Notes under the pieces: generated by a model
The model's database searches: none
What the model was told of the DNA's origin: nothing
Seen by the model: only the letters and a program-made list of their open reading frames with translations
Assembly (NCBI GenBank): GCA_035536535.1
Contig: DATLNZ010000154.1
Coordinates: 1 to 49,817, forward strand
Source of the DNA: Actinomycetota bacterium
GTDB taxonomy: Bacteria; Actinomycetota; JAICYB01
Direction: 5' to 3'
DNA: 49,817 bases
In this document: piece after piece, positions 18,073 to 25,072 of the stretch
Layout: every line of letters begins with the position of its first letter
Position numbering within the stretch: position 1 is the stretch's first letter
Translations under genes and position numbers: made by a program

Positions 18073-20009
18073 GGTGGAAGCGTCTCGGGCGGCGGTTAGG
18101 CGCCGGCGTGTGCTCGGTGGCGGTGGCGTCGATGTGTGCATGGCCGATGCCCGTGCGGGCGCAGTCTCAGGCTGAGGCCCAGGCTCGCAGTGACCTTGCC
18201 GTTTCGCTGGTCGAGATGCAGCCGTGGTTCGACCCTCAAACGCCTCTGCGTCTGCGCATCGAAGTCACGAGCCGCTCGAGACCGCTCACCGACACGACGG
18301 CGACGCTCGCCGTTCATCCGCGCGTGCGCAGCCGCGGGGAACTCGCGCGCGTTCTGACGGGCGAAAGGGCGCCGCCGGTTCTCGTAGAGCGGTCATATGA
18401 GGTGCCAGACGCGCGTGCCGGGACGCCGGTGTCCATCGACATGGTCAACGAGCCGCCCGCGCGCAGCCTGCAAGGGCTGCAGGACGGGGTTTATCCCGTC
18501 ACCGTCGCCGTCTCCAGGCGAGGGACACCGAGACAAACGCTGACCACCGCGGTCGCAATACTCCAAGGCCCCGTTTCTCCCCGGATGAGCGTGCTCACGG
18601 TGGCTCTCTTCTCTCCCACGCCGGTGCTGAGGCCCGATTGGTCCGTGCCGCGAAACGCGAGGCGCCGGCTCGAGGGTCTGAAGCGGCAGCTGGAGTCGCT
18701 TTCACCGGAAGACTCACCGGCCGTAGTGGCCGTGAGCCCGCTTGCGGCGGAAGAGCTCCGGGTGTTCCCAGCCGGGGAGGCACAACCTGCGGCTCATGCG
18801 GCGCTGGAGGCGTTGCGGACCGTAGTGGGCCGGTCGGAACTGGCGACCACGCCGCTGTGCAACTGTCAGCTCCCCCACCTCGACGATCTCGATCTTCAAC
18901 TGCCGGAGCAGTTCGAGCTTGGCCGTGAAGCCGTCCGCAGGGCCTTCGAGGCCGACCCGATCCCTCTGGTCATGCCCCCAGACCTTGTGGTGGACGCCGA
19001 GACGCTGCGGGCACTGGAGGCCAACGGCCACACGGCGTCGGTTGCAGCCTTCGACGCCCCGACCGGGCTGACGCCTGCCGAGGCCCTGAGGACCGGCGGC
19101 CTGACCGTGCTTCCTGCCGACGCACGCATCAACGAACTGTCTTCGGCGGCACGGTCTCCACTGGACGTCAGCCGGGTGGTCGCCGAGACGGCGATGGTCT
19201 ATTTCGAGAGCCCCGGGCGGGAAAGGACCCTCGTCCTGGTGGTGGACGCGACGGCTCCCCGCGCCGCCGATCTTCTCAGCGCCTTTCGGAGGGCCCCGTG
19301 GCTTCAGGCGGTGAGCGCGGCTCAGGCGGCCGCGTCTGCCACGAAACGGCAGATCCCCGTGCTGCGGCGTGCGGACCGGCCAACCCAGCCGTACAGGCGG
19401 GATCTGCGTGAAGCCCGGGAAGCTGTGGACCTGTTCGCGTCGTACACCTTGCCTGACAACCCTGCCGTCCCACACTTCCGGCACGCGCTGCTAGCCGCCG
19501 CGGGGACCGCCTGGTGGAACGAGGACTGGGCCGCCGGGACTGCCTCCGCACGCTCGGTGACCGAGTCGGTCAGGAGGCAGAGGTCGCTGATCACGACCAC
19601 GGATTCGGGCCCCGTCACGTTCACGTCCAGAAGAGGCGGCGTCCCGGTGACCGTCGGCAACAGAAGCAGGTACCGGGTGCGACTGGTCGTCGAGGTCGAA
19701 TCGGCAAAGCTCAAGTTCCCCAGAGGCCGCTCGAGGGCGCTTGAGGTGTCTCCCCCGGGTCAGACGGTCACGTTTCCGGCGCTCACGGAGGCGACGGGGA
19801 CGTTTCCCGTCCGGGTGACGCTTCGAACTCCCGATGGGCGCGTCGTGGTGGAGCAGTCGGAGATCACCGTGAGGTCCACCGCGGCCAACGTCCTCGCACT
19901 CGGCCTCACGGTGGGGGCGGCGGCGTTTCTCGTCCTGTGGTACGCGAAAGGGCGCGGACGCCGAACCCCCCGGGGGCGGGCCGGTCCTCCGAATGGGGCC
20001 ACGGGCTGA
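18069..20009 (+). CDS. DUF6049-family secreted/membrane protein
   Basis: A 646-residue protein. The GTG start overlaps the TauE stop (GTGA). Residues 1-31 form a signal peptide ending MPVRAQS. A large extracytoplasmic part follows, and one C-terminal membrane helix (VLALGLTVGAAAFLVLWYAKG) ends in a short basic cytoplasmic tail. Size, topology and position directly before murJ match the actinobacterial DUF6049 family (Rv3909 in M. tuberculosis). Its function is not established; linkage to murJ suggests an envelope role. The stop overlaps the murJ ATG (TGATG). Cys residues near residue 277 (TTPLCNCQLPHLDD) are notable. Confidence 0.82.
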   Translation: MRWKRLGRRLGAGVCSVAVASMCAWPMPVRAQSQAEAQARSDLAVSLVEMQPWFDPQTPLRLRIEVTSRSRPLTDTTATLAVHPRVRSRGELARVLTGERAPPVLVERSYEVPDARAGTPVSIDMVNEPPARSLQGLQDGVYPVTVAVSRRGTPRQTLTTAVAILQGPVSPRMSVLTVALFSPTPVLRPDWSVPRNARRRLEGLKRQLESLSPEDSPAVVAVSPLAAEELRVFPAGEAQPAAHAALEALRTVVGRSELATTPLCNCQLPHLDDLDLQLPEQFELGREAVRRAFEADPIPLVMPPDLVVDAETLRALEANGHTASVAAFDAPTGLTPAEALRTGGLTVLPADARINELSSAARSPLDVSRVVAETAMVYFESPGRERTLVLVVDATAPRAADLLSAFRRAPWLQAVSAAQAAASATKRQIPVLRRADRPTQPYRRDLREAREAVDLFASYTLPDNPAVPHFRHALLAAAGTAWWNEDWAAGTASARSVTESVRRQRSLITTTDSGPVTFTSRRGGVPVTVGNRSRYRVRLVVEVESAKLKFPRGRSRALEVSPPGQTVTFPALTEATGTFPVRVTLRTPDGRVVVEQSEITVRSTAANVLALGLTVGAAAFLVLWYAKGRGRRTPRGRAGPPNGATG

Positions 20010-21577
20010 TGCAGGAACGGAAGCTGTACCGGGCGACCGTGCTGATGACGGCCGGAACGGCGCTGTCGCGCCTGACGGGCCTCGCTCGTGTCGCTGCGCT
20101 TACATATGCGCTCGGCGTCACGGGAAGCCGTCTCGCCGACACGTACAACATCGCGAACACGCTGCCGAACATCATTTTCGAGCTGTTCCTGGGGGGCGTG
20201 CTCACCTCGCTGCTCGTCCCGGTGGTCATTTCCATGCGGTCGGAGGGGCGTTCGGACGTCTCGGGGCTGGTCACCTCGTCGCTGATCGTCCTGACCGCGC
20301 TGTCCGTCCTGACCATAGTCGCGGCCCCCCTGCTGATCCGCGTCTACACCCTGCGCATCGACGCCGCCGTGAGGGACGAGACGCGGGAGCTCGCCACGTT
20401 CCTGCTGCGGTGGTTCGCGCCGCAGATCCTCTTCTACGGCCTATCGGCCATCGGCGAAGCCCTGCTCAACGTGCGCCACCGATTCGGCCCCCCGAAGTTC
20501 ATCCCCGTCCTGAACAACCTCATATGGGGCGGCACGTTCCTCGCATACGCGAGGCTGTTCGGCGAACAGGGCCTGTCGCTTTCGCCGGGGGCCAAGACGC
20601 TGTTGGGGGCCGGAACGACCCTGGGTGTTGTGGTGCAGGGACTGGCGTACCTGCCTCTGCTCCGACAGGACAGGCTCCGGTTCCGCCCAGACTTCTCGGA
20701 CCCGGCGATCCGATCGATGCTTCGGCTGTCCGGGTACGTGATGGCCTACGTGGTGGTGAACCAGATAGGGCTGTGGGTGGTGATACAGCTGGCCCAGTCG
20801 GTCGCCGGTGGCGTCACCGCATACCAGGTCGCGTTCATCTTCCTGCAGCTGCCTCATGGACTTTTCGCCGTCAGTTTGAACTCCGCGCTGCATCCAGACT
20901 TGTCGGCGGCAGCCGTAGGCGGCGACTGGGACTCCTACCGGAGATCCTTTGCGGCAGGCGTGCGGGGGACCGCCTTTCTGCTGGTCCCGGCGGCCGTCGG
21001 CTATGCGCTGCTTTCTAGGCCGTTGGCGAGGATGCTGCTGGCCCGCGGGGCGTCCGGGGTCCGTGACGCTGACGCCGTTGCCTCTGTTCTCACCGCGTTC
21101 TGTGTCGGCCTGCCGTTTTTCTCGCTATTCCAATTCCTCACCAGGTGCTTCTACGCGCTGAGGATCACGCGCACCCCGACGCTCGTCCGTGCCGCCGCCG
21201 TCGCGGTCCATGCCGCTGTGAACGTCCCGCTGTTCACGGCGCTGGGCGTGCCCGGGCTCGCGCTCGGCCACGGCATCTCGTACGCCTTCGGGTCGATTGT
21301 GCTCTGGGGCTTGCTGAGCGGGCGCGTACAAGGCGGGCTTTCGGCGCAGGCGCTCGTCTCGCCGGTCGCGCGAGTAGCCGCCTCCGCCGCCGCGATGGGC
21401 GCGGGGGTGTGGGCTATCGTGGCGTGGCTTGGGCAAGGTCCGTTCGCCGTATTGGCGGCGACCGCCGCCGGGGCTGTACTCTACCTTGTGTTTTCGCAGG
21501 TCACGGGCCTTACAGAGGGACGGATGCTGCTGGAATCGATCCGCAGGACTCCCGCGCCGGCCCCCACCCCCGAATGA
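20009..21577 (+). CDS. murJ: Lipid II flippase MurJ
   Basis: A 522-residue MVF-family protein with about 14 membrane helices. It starts MQERKLYRATVLMTAGTALS, typical of MurJ/MviN, and contains GVTGSRLADTYNIANTLPN and LFLGGVLTSLLVPV. MurJ flips lipid II from the inner to the outer leaflet for peptidoglycan synthesis. Translation is coupled to the DUF6049 gene (TGATG) and to the next small gene (ATGA). The protein ends after the transporter core (RRTPAPAPTPE). The mycobacterial MviN homologue continues into a pseudokinase and an extracellular domain; here those parts are a separate gene at 22821. Confidence 0.95.
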   Translation: MQERKLYRATVLMTAGTALSRLTGLARVAALTYALGVTGSRLADTYNIANTLPNIIFELFLGGVLTSLLVPVVISMRSEGRSDVSGLVTSSLIVLTALSVLTIVAAPLLIRVYTLRIDAAVRDETRELATFLLRWFAPQILFYGLSAIGEALLNVRHRFGPPKFIPVLNNLIWGGTFLAYARLFGEQGLSLSPGAKTLLGAGTTLGVVVQGLAYLPLLRQDRLRFRPDFSDPAIRSMLRLSGYVMAYVVVNQIGLWVVIQLAQSVAGGVTAYQVAFIFLQLPHGLFAVSLNSALHPDLSAAAVGGDWDSYRRSFAAGVRGTAFLLVPAAVGYALLSRPLARMLLARGASGVRDADAVASVLTAFCVGLPFFSLFQFLTRCFYALRITRTPTLVRAAAVAVHAAVNVPLFTALGVPGLALGHGISYAFGSIVLWGLLSGRVQGGLSAQALVSPVARVAASAAAMGAGVWAIVAWLGQGPFAVLAATAAGAVLYLVFSQVTGLTEGRMLLESIRRTPAPAPTPE

Positions 21578-21972
21578 CGACTGTGCGAAGGGTCATCGCC
21601 GCTGAGGCTGGACAGGTCTCCGCCTGGCTCGTGAAGATGCTGCTGGCCGTCGCGGTGGTTGGTTTTATCGTGCTCGAAGGCGGATCGCTTGTGTTCAACC
21701 GACTCCAGGCACCCGACATTGCGGCTACGGCGGCACAGGAAGCAGGACTCGTCTACTCCAACTCCAACGTGTTCGAAGCCGCCAAAGCGACGGCCGAGGA
21801 GTACGTGACCAAGAACGGGGGCGAGTTCGTCGAGTTCAAGGTCGATCCCGTTGGGCGGCGGGTGTCGGTTCGGATGAAAAAGACGGCCAAGACGTTCGTG
21901 GTCAAGAAGATCGAGCGGCTGCACCCGCTGGCGGTCGTCGAGGTCACCGAGTCGGCTCCTTTGCGGACCTAG
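21574..21972 (+). CDS. Small single-pass membrane protein in the murJ operon
   Basis: A 132-residue protein whose ATG overlaps the murJ stop (ATGA). A short N-terminal part (MTTVRRVIAAEAGQVSAWLV) leads into one membrane helix (about 21-39). An outer domain of about 90 residues follows, which alternates helix-prone and strand-prone segments (VFEAAKATAEEYV, EFVEFKVDP, RRVSVRMKK). The layout resembles TadE/TadG-like pseudopilin proteins, but similarity is weak and I do not assign it. Tight coupling to murJ suggests it is made at the same time as the flippase. Confidence 0.7.
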   Translation: MTTVRRVIAAEAGQVSAWLVKMLLAVAVVGFIVLEGGSLVFNRLQAPDIAATAAQEAGLVYSNSNVFEAAKATAEEYVTKNGGEFVEFKVDPVGRRVSVRMKKTAKTFVVKKIERLHPLAVVEVTESAPLRT

Positions 21973-21990: not shown

Positions 21991-22821
21991 ATGGTCAAGG
22001 TCGTGACTGATTCCGCGGCGGACCTGCCGCCTGAACTGGCCTCGAGCCACGGCATCCGAGTCGTTCCTCTGACGATCCGGTTCGGCACCGAGAGTTTCCT
22101 GAGCGGCGTGGACCTCGATGCCCACCAGTTCTGGACGAAGTTGCGTGCGTCCTCGGACAGCCCGGCGACGGCCGCGCCCAGCGCAGGCGAGTTCGAGACG
22201 GTCTACCGGGAACTGGCCGAGGAGGGGGCGGACGGCGTGGTTTCCGTCCATCTGTCCGAGAAGCTGTCGGCGACAGCCCAGTCCGCGAAGATCGCGGCGC
22301 GGTCGGCCGGCGTCCGGGTGGAGGTGATCGACTCCCAGGGCGTGTCCGGCACCACGGCGTTGATGGCACTGAGGGCCGCGGAACTGGCGGACAAGGGGTC
22401 GGATCTCGACGCGATCGTCAGGGACCTTGAAGAACTGCGGGACCGGACGAAGCTTTTCGCGGTCATCGACACGCTCGAGTACCTCAGGCGAGGCGGGCGG
22501 ATCGGCGGCGCCCAGGCGCTGCTCGGGACGATGTTGCAGGTGAAACCCGTCATCAGCATCGTCGACGGCGTCGTCGAACCCGTGGGACGCGTGAGGACCC
22601 GCGCCAAGGCTTTTCAGCACCTCGCGGGTCTGGTCAAAGCGGACGCAGGCCGCATCGACCAGATGGTGGTGATAACCGGTGAGGCCCCCGACGTGGACAC
22701 CTTCCTGTCGATGCTGGACGGAGTCGTGGATATACCGCCGGAACGGGTCTGGACACTCGGCCCGGTTGTCGGGACCCATGCGGGCCCCGGCGTAGTTGGT
22801 GTCGCCTTCTCCACGACCTGA
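21991..22821 (+). CDS. DegV-family fatty-acid-binding protein
   Basis: A 276-residue protein with the DegV (EDD) fold. It opens with VKVVTDSAADLPPELA, and contains TAAPSAGEFETVY, VIDSQGVSGTTALMALRAAE, FAVIDTLEYLRRGGRIGG and LKVKPVISIVDG-type segments (here LQVKPVISIVDG). DegV proteins bind fatty acids; in Firmicutes the FakB members present them to the kinase FakA for phosphorylation. No FakA is in this window. A good AAAGGAAA site precedes ATG 21991, and the stop overlaps the next ATG (TGATG). Confidence 0.93.
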   Translation: MVKVVTDSAADLPPELASSHGIRVVPLTIRFGTESFLSGVDLDAHQFWTKLRASSDSPATAAPSAGEFETVYRELAEEGADGVVSVHLSEKLSATAQSAKIAARSAGVRVEVIDSQGVSGTTALMALRAAELADKGSDLDAIVRDLEELRDRTKLFAVIDTLEYLRRGGRIGGAQALLGTMLQVKPVISIVDGVVEPVGRVRTRAKAFQHLAGLVKADAGRIDQMVVITGEAPDVDTFLSMLDGVVDIPPERVWTLGPVVGTHAGPGVVGVAFSTT

Positions 22822-24056
22822 TGCCGGCGACGGTTGCGCCCGGTTCGCTCATAGGGGGCCGGTACAAGGTCGAGGCGAACCTCGGCTCGTCGGATCGATC
22901 GTCGGTGTGGAGGGCGCTGGACGAGCGGCTCCAGCGACAGGTCGCGATAAGGGTGTTCGCGCAGGTCGACGACGCCCAGGATCTCCAGCATCAGATCGGG
23001 GTGGCCGCTTCGCTGACGCACCCCCGCGTCGTGCGGGTGTTCGACACCGGTTACGACAGCGGCAACTTCTACACCGTGAGCGAGCTGCTTCCGGGGTCCC
23101 TTGCGTGGGCCGCCCTTCCGCTGTCGACGTCGGAGGCCCTTTCGGTTGGCGCGGATGTGGCCGAAGCCCTCCGCTACGCCCACTCCCGCGGGGTCGTGCA
23201 CGGCAACCTTCACGAGGGCAACGTGCTGCTGTCCGAGCAGGGCGCCAAAGTAGGCGACTTCTGGGTGGTGGCGGGCAGCGGTCCGTCCGGCCCCGCGCGG
23301 GACCTGGTGGCTCTCGGGAGCCTCATAAAGCGCCTGGCGCCGCCGGAGTTGCCTGATCCAGGCAACCGGGAGCTTGCGAGGATCGCCGGGAAGCTGGAAG
23401 CGGGGGCCTATCCGGACGCCGAAAGCGCCCTCTCGGACCTCAGGTCCATCCGTCCCAGCCAGCCGAGGTCGGTCCCGAAGCGCAGTGCGGTGCCGGTGAT
23501 CGTCGCCGGCATCGCGTTGCTCGGCCTCCTCGTGGCGGGAGCAACCCGGCTGGGAGCGAGGTCCACGCCGACTCCGGCTCCGTCCGAAAGCCACTTCGCC
23601 GGAGACCCCCACCGGATCGTCCGTGTCGAGGACTTCGATCCCATGGGCAACGACGGCCGTGAGGGCCGGCGCTCTGTGGCGCGCATAACGGACGGCGACA
23701 CGGCCACCTTCTGGGCGACCGAGCGGTACTCCAGCGCAGGCTTCTCCGGGCTGAAACGCGGGGTCGGTGTGATTGTCGATCTGGGACAGGCGCGGGAGGT
23801 GGGTCGTGCGAAGTTGCTGATGGGGGTGGAGGGGTGCGCCGTCGAGCTGCGCCGGTCGGAGGGCCGGGCGCGCACGATCGACGGCTGGGACACCGTCGCC
23901 TCCGTGGGTTCGGCAGGCAGGACGACGTCGGTCGATGTGCGTCCGTCGACGTCCCGGTGGTGGCTGGTCTGGATAACGAGGCTGGGCCGAACGCCGGGTG
24001 GACGCGGACGGTCGTATTCGTGTGCCGTTTCGGAGGTCGGGTTATACCCGCCGTGA
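22821..24056 (+). CDS. Membrane pseudokinase with extracellular beta-sandwich domain (MviN C-terminal-half homologue)
   Basis: A 411-residue protein. Residues 11-210 have the fold order of a Ser/Thr kinase (GGRYKVEANLGS) but lack key catalytic residues. The ATP-binding Lys is Arg44 (VAIRVF), the catalytic-loop HRD is HGN (127-129, with HEGN at 131-134), DFG is DFW (146-148), and the Gly loop is degraded. A membrane helix spans about 224-241. The outer part (about 265-411) looks like a discoidin-type carbohydrate-binding sandwich (ARITDGDTATFWATE). Mycobacterial MviN carries the same pseudokinase-TM-outer-domain order fused to MurJ; here it is free-standing, three genes downstream of murJ in the same run. 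It probably acts as a scaffold controlling peptidoglycan export. Confidence 0.85.
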   Translation: MPATVAPGSLIGGRYKVEANLGSSDRSSVWRALDERLQRQVAIRVFAQVDDAQDLQHQIGVAASLTHPRVVRVFDTGYDSGNFYTVSELLPGSLAWAALPLSTSEALSVGADVAEALRYAHSRGVVHGNLHEGNVLLSEQGAKVGDFWVVAGSGPSGPARDLVALGSLIKRLAPPELPDPGNRELARIAGKLEAGAYPDAESALSDLRSIRPSQPRSVPKRSAVPVIVAGIALLGLLVAGATRLGARSTPTPAPSESHFAGDPHRIVRVEDFDPMGNDGREGRRSVARITDGDTATFWATERYSSAGFSGLKRGVGVIVDLGQAREVGRAKLLMGVEGCAVELRRSEGRARTIDGWDTVASVGSAGRTTSVDVRPSTSRWWLVWITRLGRTPGGRGRSYSCAVSEVGLYPP

Positions 24057-24142: not shown

Positions 24143-25072
24143 ATGGATCCCAGGCAGGTGCTCATCATCGGATCGGGTCCCGCGGGCTTCACGGCCGCGG
24201 TCTACGCGGCGCGCGCGAACCTACAGCCCCTGTTGTTCGAGGGTTTCGGCTGGGGCGGACAGTTGATGATCACGTCCGACGTCGAGAACTATCCGGGCTT
24301 CTCCGACGGCATCCAGGGCCCGGAACTGATGGAGGCCTTCCGAAAGCAGGCCCTTCGCTTCGGGACCGAGATCGTCACGGAGGACGTGACACGGGTCGAC
24401 TTCTCGTGCCGCCCGTTCAGGGTCTGGACCGGTGAACGAGAGCACTCCGCAAGATCGGTGATCGTCTCGACCGGCGCGGTAGCCCGTCGCATAGGTATCC
24501 CGGGTGAAACCGAAATGACCGGCAAGGGGCTTTCCTATTGCGCGACGTGCGACGGCTTTTTCTTCAGAGGCGAGGAGATCGTCGTCATCGGTGGTGGTGA
24601 CACGGCGCTTGAGGAAGCCCTGTTCCTGTCCAAGTTCGGCTCCAAAGTCACGGTGGTGCACCGGCGGGACCAGCTGAGGGCATCAAAGATCCTCCAGGAC
24701 CGCGCGTTCGCGCACCCAAAGCTCAGCTTCGTCTGGGACTCCGTGGCGACAGGGATCGCGATGGACGGCGACAAGCTGACCGGCCTGAACCTGCGCAACG
24801 TGATTTCCGGCGAGGAATCTTTCCTGGCGGCAGGTGGCGTCTTCGTCGCCATCGGACACGACCCCGCCACGAAGATCTTCGAGGGCCAGCTGGATATGGA
24901 CCCGCAGGGTTACATCCTCACGCAGGCGCCGGCGTCCAGGACTTCGGTGGAGGGGGTTTTCGCGGGCGGCGACTGTGTGGACCACGTCTACCGGCAGGCC
25001 GTGACCGCCGCGGGAATGGGTTGCGCCGCCGCGATCGACGCCGAGCGCTGGCTGGAGTCCGTGGGTCACTGA
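24143..25072 (+). CDS. trxB: Thioredoxin reductase
   Basis: A 309-residue FAD/NADPH enzyme. The FAD motif is IIGSGPAGFTAAVYAAR (8-24), the redox motif SYCATCDG (Cys133 and Cys136), the NADPH motif VVIGGGDTALEEA, and the C-terminal FAD motif GVFAGGDCVD. It reduces thioredoxin (trxA at 26323). ATG 24143 follows AAAAGGAG. TAGTCT at 24101-24106 is a likely actinobacterial -10 (TAGnnT type). A 70-bp break separates trxB from the murJ run, so it probably has its own promoter. SigM, found between these blocks in mycobacteria, is absent. Confidence 0.96.
   Translation: MDPRQVLIIGSGPAGFTAAVYAARANLQPLLFEGFGWGGQLMITSDVENYPGFSDGIQGPELMEAFRKQALRFGTEIVTEDVTRVDFSCRPFRVWTGEREHSARSVIVSTGAVARRIGIPGETEMTGKGLSYCATCDGFFFRGEEIVVIGGGDTALEEALFLSKFGSKVTVVHRRDQLRASKILQDRAFAHPKLSFVWDSVATGIAMDGDKLTGLNLRNVISGEESFLAAGGVFVAIGHDPATKIFEGQLDMDPQGYILTQAPASRTSVEGVFAGGDCVDHVYRQAVTAAGMGCAAAIDAERWLESVGH

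What the first reader, a model, noticed from the sequence alone, without database searches (positions are those of the whole stretch)
22821..24056. Pseudokinase and outer domain unfused from MurJ
Mycobacterial MviN is one chain: MurJ, then a pseudokinase that recruits an FHA protein, then an outer domain. Here MurJ ends at its transporter core (21577), and the pseudokinase-TM-outer part is a separate gene after two others (a small membrane protein and DegV) in a coupled run. The dead-kinase state is clear: Arg44 for Lys, HGN for HRD, DFW for DFG. The presumed activation segment (AGSGPSGPAR) has Ser but no Thr, which matters if pThr-FHA docking is expected. This could be the ancestral, split form of the flippase control module and would show that the scaffold can act in trans.
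Basis: partly seen in the sequence, partly recalled or inferred. Interest (0 to 1): 0.72.

Follow-up and report, generated by a model that had tools for sequence, protein, structure and literature searches.

The report
Split MurJ-partner pseudokinase with sugar-binding domain
Next to the gene for a cell-wall precursor flippase (MurJ), this bacterium carries a separate membrane protein with a dead kinase inside and a sugar-binding-like domain outside; it is the unfused form of a control module known from tuberculosis bacteria, and this separate form turns out to be the usual one across the phylum Actinomycetota.

Summary
Window 22821-24056 encodes kinase-fold domain, one TM helix and a CBM32-like outer domain, in a coupled run murJ - small membrane protein - degV - this gene. 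The outer domain is homologous to that of mycobacterial MviN (hhalign 99.8%, E 1e-28). The kinase is dead by motif (R44, HGN, DFW, activation-segment deletion).

Split is the norm: of 297 phylum genomes, 134 carry the outer domain, nearly always in an unfused gene that is often beside murJ and trxB. Most such kinases keep every catalytic residue (92 of 129 scored), so the ancestor was probably an active transmembrane kinase that died several times. Fusion to MurJ is derived and occurred more than once (3 changes on the tree; one fused clade rejected, p 1e-69). In one family MurJ is fused straight to the outer domain with no kinase.

Best explanation: a glycan-sensing partner of MurJ acting in trans, whose conserved core is the outer domain. 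Phospho-Thr/FHA docking is not supported: there is no Thr in the activation segment or juxtamembrane tail, although FhaA, FhaB and PknB are all present. A 2023 figure legend had already noted a kinase gene downstream of unextended mviN.

The parts
22821..24056 (+). split pseudokinase - TM - outer domain protein (411 aa), MviN C-terminal module as a separate gene
22842..23450 (+). pseudokinase domain (about residues 8-210): R44 for Lys, HGN for HRD, DFW for DFG, short activation segment, no Thr in it
   Evidence: Pkinase E 1e-14; motif alignment; Foldseek nearest PknB, PknA, PknI
23490..23543 (+). transmembrane helix (residues 224-241)
   Evidence: AlphaFold helix; hydropathy; present in 128 of 130 relatives
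23592..24053 (+). outer domain, CBM32 / F5-8C-like beta-sandwich, homologous to the outer domain of MviN
   Evidence: hhalign 99.8% E 1e-28; Foldseek top 4zxe chitosan-binding module; pLDDT 93.8
19937..21577 (+). MurJ lipid II flippase, ends after its core, no fused extension
   Evidence: PF03023 E 7e-80, TIGR01695 over its cut-off
21568..21972 (+). small membrane protein between murJ and the kinase gene; recurs in many relatives
   Evidence: weak TIGR03816 match, below its cut-off
21991..22821 (+). DegV / FakB-like fatty-acid-binding protein, translationally coupled to the pseudokinase gene
   Evidence: TIGR00762 E 7e-85; CTGATG overlap
24143..25072 (+). thioredoxin reductase TrxB, conserved downstream neighbour of this locus
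18141..20009 (+). DUF6049 protein, conserved upstream neighbour (frame matched; exact start not set)
   Evidence: PF19516 E 9e-27; conserved

Best explanation
This is the unfused form of the MurJ control module: a single-pass membrane protein with a CBM32-like domain outside that probably reads a cell-wall glycan (inferred), and a catalytically dead kinase-fold domain inside that serves as a scaffold or allosteric arm (inferred). It most likely binds MurJ in the membrane and ties lipid II flipping to the state of the wall, doing in trans what MviN does in one chain (inferred from repeated fusions and gene order). The ancestor was probably an active split transmembrane kinase at the murJ-trxB locus; catalysis was lost several times, and fusion to MurJ came later and more than once (shown on trees, with the limits given). 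In this genome the inner domain probably does not use the MviN-type phospho-Thr/FhaA dock.
For: Homology: a profile built only from split outer domains finds the fused MviN outer domains at E about 2e-20 to 1e-23. Profile-profile comparison gives 99.8%, E 1e-28, and plain blastp from the window's outer domain reaches 6 of 8 fused ones at E<1e-3. The fused set is MviN: its kinase profile hits the PDB entries of M. tuberculosis MviN (3OTV, 3OUK, 3UQC, 3OUN) at E 1e-137, and its motifs VALT and LSIDHP[S/D]R match the MviN rows of PMC12599244 Table 1. Link to MurJ: the order nudix - DUF6049 - murJ - (small) - (degV) - kinase - trxB is kept across many families. Fused forms arose in families f25, f73 and f72; 3 changes on the tree; one clade of all fused forms is rejected (p 1e-69), as is f25+f73 (p 0.0004). 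In f72 MurJ is fused to TM plus outer domain with a disordered linker and no kinase. Dead state. Motif-intact relatives: 92 of 129 scored proteins. Outer fold: Foldseek tops are CBM32 chitosan-binding modules; F5_F8_type_C or CBM_AftD match many relatives.
Against: Some lineages keep the kinase at the DUF6049-trxB locus while their murJ lies elsewhere, so the MurJ link is not universal. The same architecture also occurs as paralogs far from murJ (40 loci, all active by motif). The MurJ complex and glycan binding were not tested. The window's outer domain is below Pfam's cut-off for CBM families by itself.
Confidence: 0.62

Rival explanations
1. It is a pThr/FHA scaffold exactly like MviN: PknB phosphorylates it and FhaA docks to shut down the flippase, only in trans.
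For: The genome has FhaA (FhaA_N plus FHA), FhaB, PstP, RodA, PbpA and PASTA-PknB in one cluster, and five FHA domains in all.
Against: The tail Thr conserved in all fused f25 proteins (ADRTD/E, which should be Thr947 of MviN) is missing; the window's linker RSIRPSQPRSVPKRS has no Thr, nor has the activation segment. The two family relatives keep no common Thr there.
Confidence: 0.12
2. It is an ordinary receptor kinase paralog of the PknB type that happens to sit beside murJ; catalysis decayed and it has no MurJ-related role.
For: The kinase fold is nearest PknB, PknA and PknI, not MviN; paralogs with the same outer domain lie far from murJ.
Against: The locus order is kept across the phylum and the outer domain was fused to MurJ repeatedly, once with the kinase missing.
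Confidence: 0.15
3. The inner domain still binds nucleotide through R44, as proposed for ActPs2 pseudokinases, and acts as an ATP-sensing switch.
For: R44 plus HxN resembles ActPs2 motifs; R44 and HGN are kept in all three family members.
Against: It lacks the large ActPs2 insertions; the Gly loop and DFG are degenerate and not conserved in the family (DFW, EFG, DFA); one relative has a stop inside the N-lobe.
Confidence: 0.1

Closest known systems
Mycobacterium tuberculosis MviN (Rv3910), pseudokinase - TM - outer domain (ActPs3 family)
   Same: domain order, homologous outer domain, dead kinase with a short activation segment, same gene neighbourhood
   Different: one chain with MurJ there, separate gene here; motifs VALT / LSIDHPSR there, VAIR / HGN / DFW here; the FhaA-docking tail Thr is absent here
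'protein kinase family protein' downstream of unextended mviN (PMC10166564, S6 Fig legend)
   Same: very probably the same gene in other Actinobacteria
   Different: that legend gives neither domain homology nor catalytic state nor evolution
ActPs2 pseudokinases (PMC12599244)
   Same: Arg for the beta3 Lys and Asn for the HRD Asp
   Different: no 32-aa and 250-aa insertions here; an activation-segment deletion instead
CBM32 / F5-8 type C modules (chitosan-binding module 4zxe; AlyQ CBM32 7d29) and the AftD carbohydrate-binding module
   Same: predicted fold, weak sequence similarity
   Different: on a kinase-TM protein; ligand unknown
PASTA kinases PknB / StkP
   Same: nearest kinase folds and sequences
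   Different: no PASTA domains, dead motifs, CBM-like outer domain

Membership tests
MviN C-terminal module (MurJ-linked pseudokinase) | kinase-fold cytosolic domain - single TM - outer domain | tested here: met
MviN C-terminal module (MurJ-linked pseudokinase) | outer domain homologous to that of MviN | tested here: met
   hhalign 99.8%, E 1e-28; blastp to 6 of 8 fused
MviN C-terminal module (MurJ-linked pseudokinase) | fused to the MurJ core in one chain | tested here: not met
   separate ORFs with two genes between
MviN C-terminal module (MurJ-linked pseudokinase) | encoded at the murJ locus | tested here: met
MviN C-terminal module (MurJ-linked pseudokinase) | conserved tail Thr that docks FhaA | tested here: not met
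   no Thr in the linker
MviN C-terminal module (MurJ-linked pseudokinase) | binds FhaA when phosphorylated and restrains peptidoglycan synthesis | not testable with these tools
   needs biochemistry
ActPs3 pseudokinase family | loss of all three catalytic motifs with an activation-loop deletion | tested here: met
   His127, Asn134 and Asp146 remain
ActPs3 pseudokinase family | MviN-type motif residues (VALT, LSIDHP) | tested here: not met
   VAIR, HGNLHEGN
ActPs2 pseudokinase family | Arg at beta3 and Asn for the HRD Asp | tested here: met
ActPs2 pseudokinase family | about 250-aa activation-loop extension | tested here: not met
   segment of about 10 aa
CBM32 / F5-8 type C | beta-sandwich fold of the family | tested here: met
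   Foldseek E 6e-8, prob 1.00
CBM32 / F5-8 type C | over the curated Pfam cut-off | tested here: not met
   15.8 bits against 28.2
CBM32 / F5-8 type C | binds a glycan | not testable with these tools
   needs binding assay
PASTA Ser/Thr kinase (PknB) | catalytic K, HRD, DFG and PASTA repeats | tested here: not met

The most novel reading that the evidence does not exclude
Actinomycetota ancestrally control the lipid II flippase with a separate, catalytically active, glycan-reading transmembrane kinase. Its catalysis has been lost many times and it has been welded to MurJ at least twice, in one family with the kinase discarded altogether, so the outer glycan-sensing domain, not the kinase or the FHA dock, is the conserved heart of the module.
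Probability: 0.5. Interest if true: 0.75.

Novelty: new variant of a known kind. Interest (0 to 1): 0.6.

Why it matters
The MviN pseudokinase is a textbook example of flippase control, but the literature read here treats its extended form as a speciality of organisms with arabinogalactan (PMC10166564) and the outer domain as peculiar to MviN (PMC12599244). The survey suggests instead a phylum-wide module with natural variants: active, dead, split, fused, and kinase-less. These make it directly testable which part regulates MurJ and what it senses.

Tried and rejected
(1) Split form unique to this window: rejected, it is the common arrangement. (2) Assembly artefact or decaying gene: rejected, three genera of the family and many others have it. 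(3) One origin of all dead kinases: rejected (AU p 1e-48). (4) One origin of all fused forms: rejected. (5) Window lineage plus class Actinomycetes as one dead clade: two genes do not reject it (p 0.70), six genes weakly do (p 0.036; with f30 and f52 included p 0.001); left open. (6) ActPs2 membership: motif match only, insertions absent. (7) search for related loci with broad alignments A1 and A2 failed for lack of conserved stretches; a narrower one worked. (9) Gee et al. 2012 is not held in the library. (10) The excess of dead kinases beside murJ (33 of 63, against 4 of 66 elsewhere, Fisher 3e-9) is confounded by kinship and is given as a lead only.

Full report
Observation. The 411-aa ORF at 22821-24056 is open, in frame and as described: R44 in place of the beta3 Lys, HGN for HRD, DFW for DFG, and a short Ser-only activation segment. 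It follows murJ (19937-21577), a small membrane protein (21568-21972) and degV (21991-22821) in a coupled run, and trxB follows. AlphaFold on an alignment of the window and 28 relatives gives a kinase fold, a TM helix at 224-241 and a beta-sandwich (pLDDT 87). The outer domain alone reaches pLDDT 93.8.

What the outer domain is. By single-sequence search it is barely visible (F5/8C E 0.16). A profile of 14 split relatives finds it in 134 of 297 genomes of the phylum. Its fold is CBM32-like: the best PDB matches are chitosan-binding modules and the CBM32 of AlyQ, and relatives match F5_F8_type_C and the AftD carbohydrate-binding module in Pfam. The mycobacterial outer domains match the same AftD module.

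Link to MviN. Family f25 encodes one chain of MurJ, kinase and outer domain. Its motifs are VALT and LSIDHP[S/D/N]R, those listed for MviN of Mycobacterium and Nocardia in PMC12599244. Its kinase profile hits 3OTV, 3OUK, 3UQC and 3OUN at E 1e-137. So f25 is the MviN family proper. The split outer profile against the fused outer profile gives hhalign 99.8%, E 1e-28, and the window's own sequence reaches 6 of 8 fused domains by blastp. The pseudokinase domains compare at 97%, E 6e-11, which any two kinase folds might give. The other one is half met: many homologues look like active kinases, but they carry the MviN-type outer domain.

Split and fused across the phylum. The order nudix - DUF6049 - murJ - (small) - (degV) - kinase - trxB - trxA - amidase recurs in most families read. 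Named examples are MAGs labelled Acidimicrobiia, Frankiaceae, Frankiales, Nitriliruptoraceae and Solirubrobacterales. The window's class holds only three genomes in the collection. In the first sample fusion appeared only in f25. A survey of the order of f25 (71 genomes) and 20 loci read from it showed more: f73 is fused in all six genomes read, f84, f83, f56 and others are split, and f72 has both states. In f72, G312 (one contig) and G324 have MurJ followed by a disordered linker, a TM helix and the outer domain with no kinase, while G333 has split murJ and a degenerate kinase-TM-outer protein. On a TrxB+MurJ tree fusion needs 3 changes; f25 is sister to split f83 (support 100/99). Holding f25+f73 together is rejected (p 0.0004), and holding all fused together is rejected (p 1e-69). 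So at least two fusions occurred, plus either a third fusion or one fission.

Active and dead. Of 129 proteins scored by motif, 92 keep Lys, HRD Asp, the catalytic-loop Asn and DF, and 37 do not. 'Active' here means motif-intact, not measured. The states need 7 changes on one tree and 6 on another, and one clade of all dead forms is rejected. The residues lost differ from group to group: VAIR/HGN/DFW here, HGAV/GTG in f10, HGSL/DFS with Lys kept in f13, VGVH/HLRL/GLA in f19, VALT/LSIDHP in f25. The window's family groups with dead f30 and f52 on six genes (SH-aLRT 91). A shared dead origin with the class that contains MviN is rejected weakly (p 0.036) but not by two genes (p 0.70). Hence the split arrangement is ancestral, while the dead state of this protein may or may not be the same event as MviN's.

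Mechanism. Shown: locus linkage, repeated fusion, architecture, dead motifs, predicted fold. Inferred: physical partnership with MurJ in trans, glycan sensing outside, scaffold or allosteric role inside. The kinase-less MurJ-outer fusions suggest that the outer domain is the part MurJ cannot spare. The genome has FhaA, FhaB, PstP, RodA, PbpA and PASTA-PknB together, so the upstream pathway exists. The FhaA-docking Thr of MviN, however, lies in a tail motif (ADRTD/E; taken to be Thr947 from its position at the end of the pseudokinase domain and the description in PMC10166564, not by numbering here) that the window lacks.

Limits. murJ is elsewhere in some lineages that keep the kinase at the trxB locus. 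Paralogs with the same architecture lie far from murJ and are all motif-intact. The MurJ complex could not be modelled. Several deep branches are weak, and trees came from short searches except the one.

Prior knowledge. PMC10166564 (2023) states that the extended MviN is confined to organisms with arabinogalactan, and its S6 legend notes a 'protein kinase family protein' frequently downstream of unextended mviN. [quoted passage not shown] The present survey modifies the second statement; whether it also modifies the first depends on the names of f72 and f73, which the tools do not give. No paper in the library was found that describes the split module's homology, its active forms or the kinase-less fusion.

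Noticed in passing
L248:5988-8801 (-), L249:8836-11283 (+): MurJ fused directly to TM plus CBM-like outer domain with a disordered linker and no kinase, in two genomes of family f72; a third genome of that family (L250) has the split pseudokinase form.
   Followed up: partly
window 21991-22821; also L031, L032, L125, L142, L143, L146, L158, L163, L173, L188, L195: A DegV/FakB-like fatty-acid-binding gene sits directly upstream of the kinase-TM-outer gene in several families, with or without murJ there; a functional link is unknown.
   Followed up: no
window 21568-21972; also L033, L034, L036, L088, L116 and others: A small membrane protein between murJ and the kinase gene is conserved in many families, and is present in some loci that lack murJ; no clear family, weak TadE-like match.
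   Followed up: no
L032, upstream of 9069 (-), same contig as L201: In the G002 ortholog an in-frame TAA cuts the Gly-loop part off the dead kinase; real truncation or MAG error.
   Followed up: partly
L200 (G150:C1:3261203-3261634): A genome with the fused MviN also carries a second, motif-intact kinase with the same outer domain elsewhere.
   Followed up: no
G000:C18:28075-29421 (L075, L230): The window's genome has a second MurJ-family gene away from this locus.
   Followed up: no
L041, L042, L081, L179 and other loci scored 'elsewhere': 40 loci hold motif-intact kinases with this outer domain outside the murJ-trxB locus; a wider family of CBM-bearing receptor kinases in Actinomycetota.
   Followed up: partly
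G297, G311, G323, G332, G340, G348, G354 (family f71): No outer domain was found in any of seven good genomes of family f71, within an order where nearly all others have it: apparent loss of the module.
   Followed up: no
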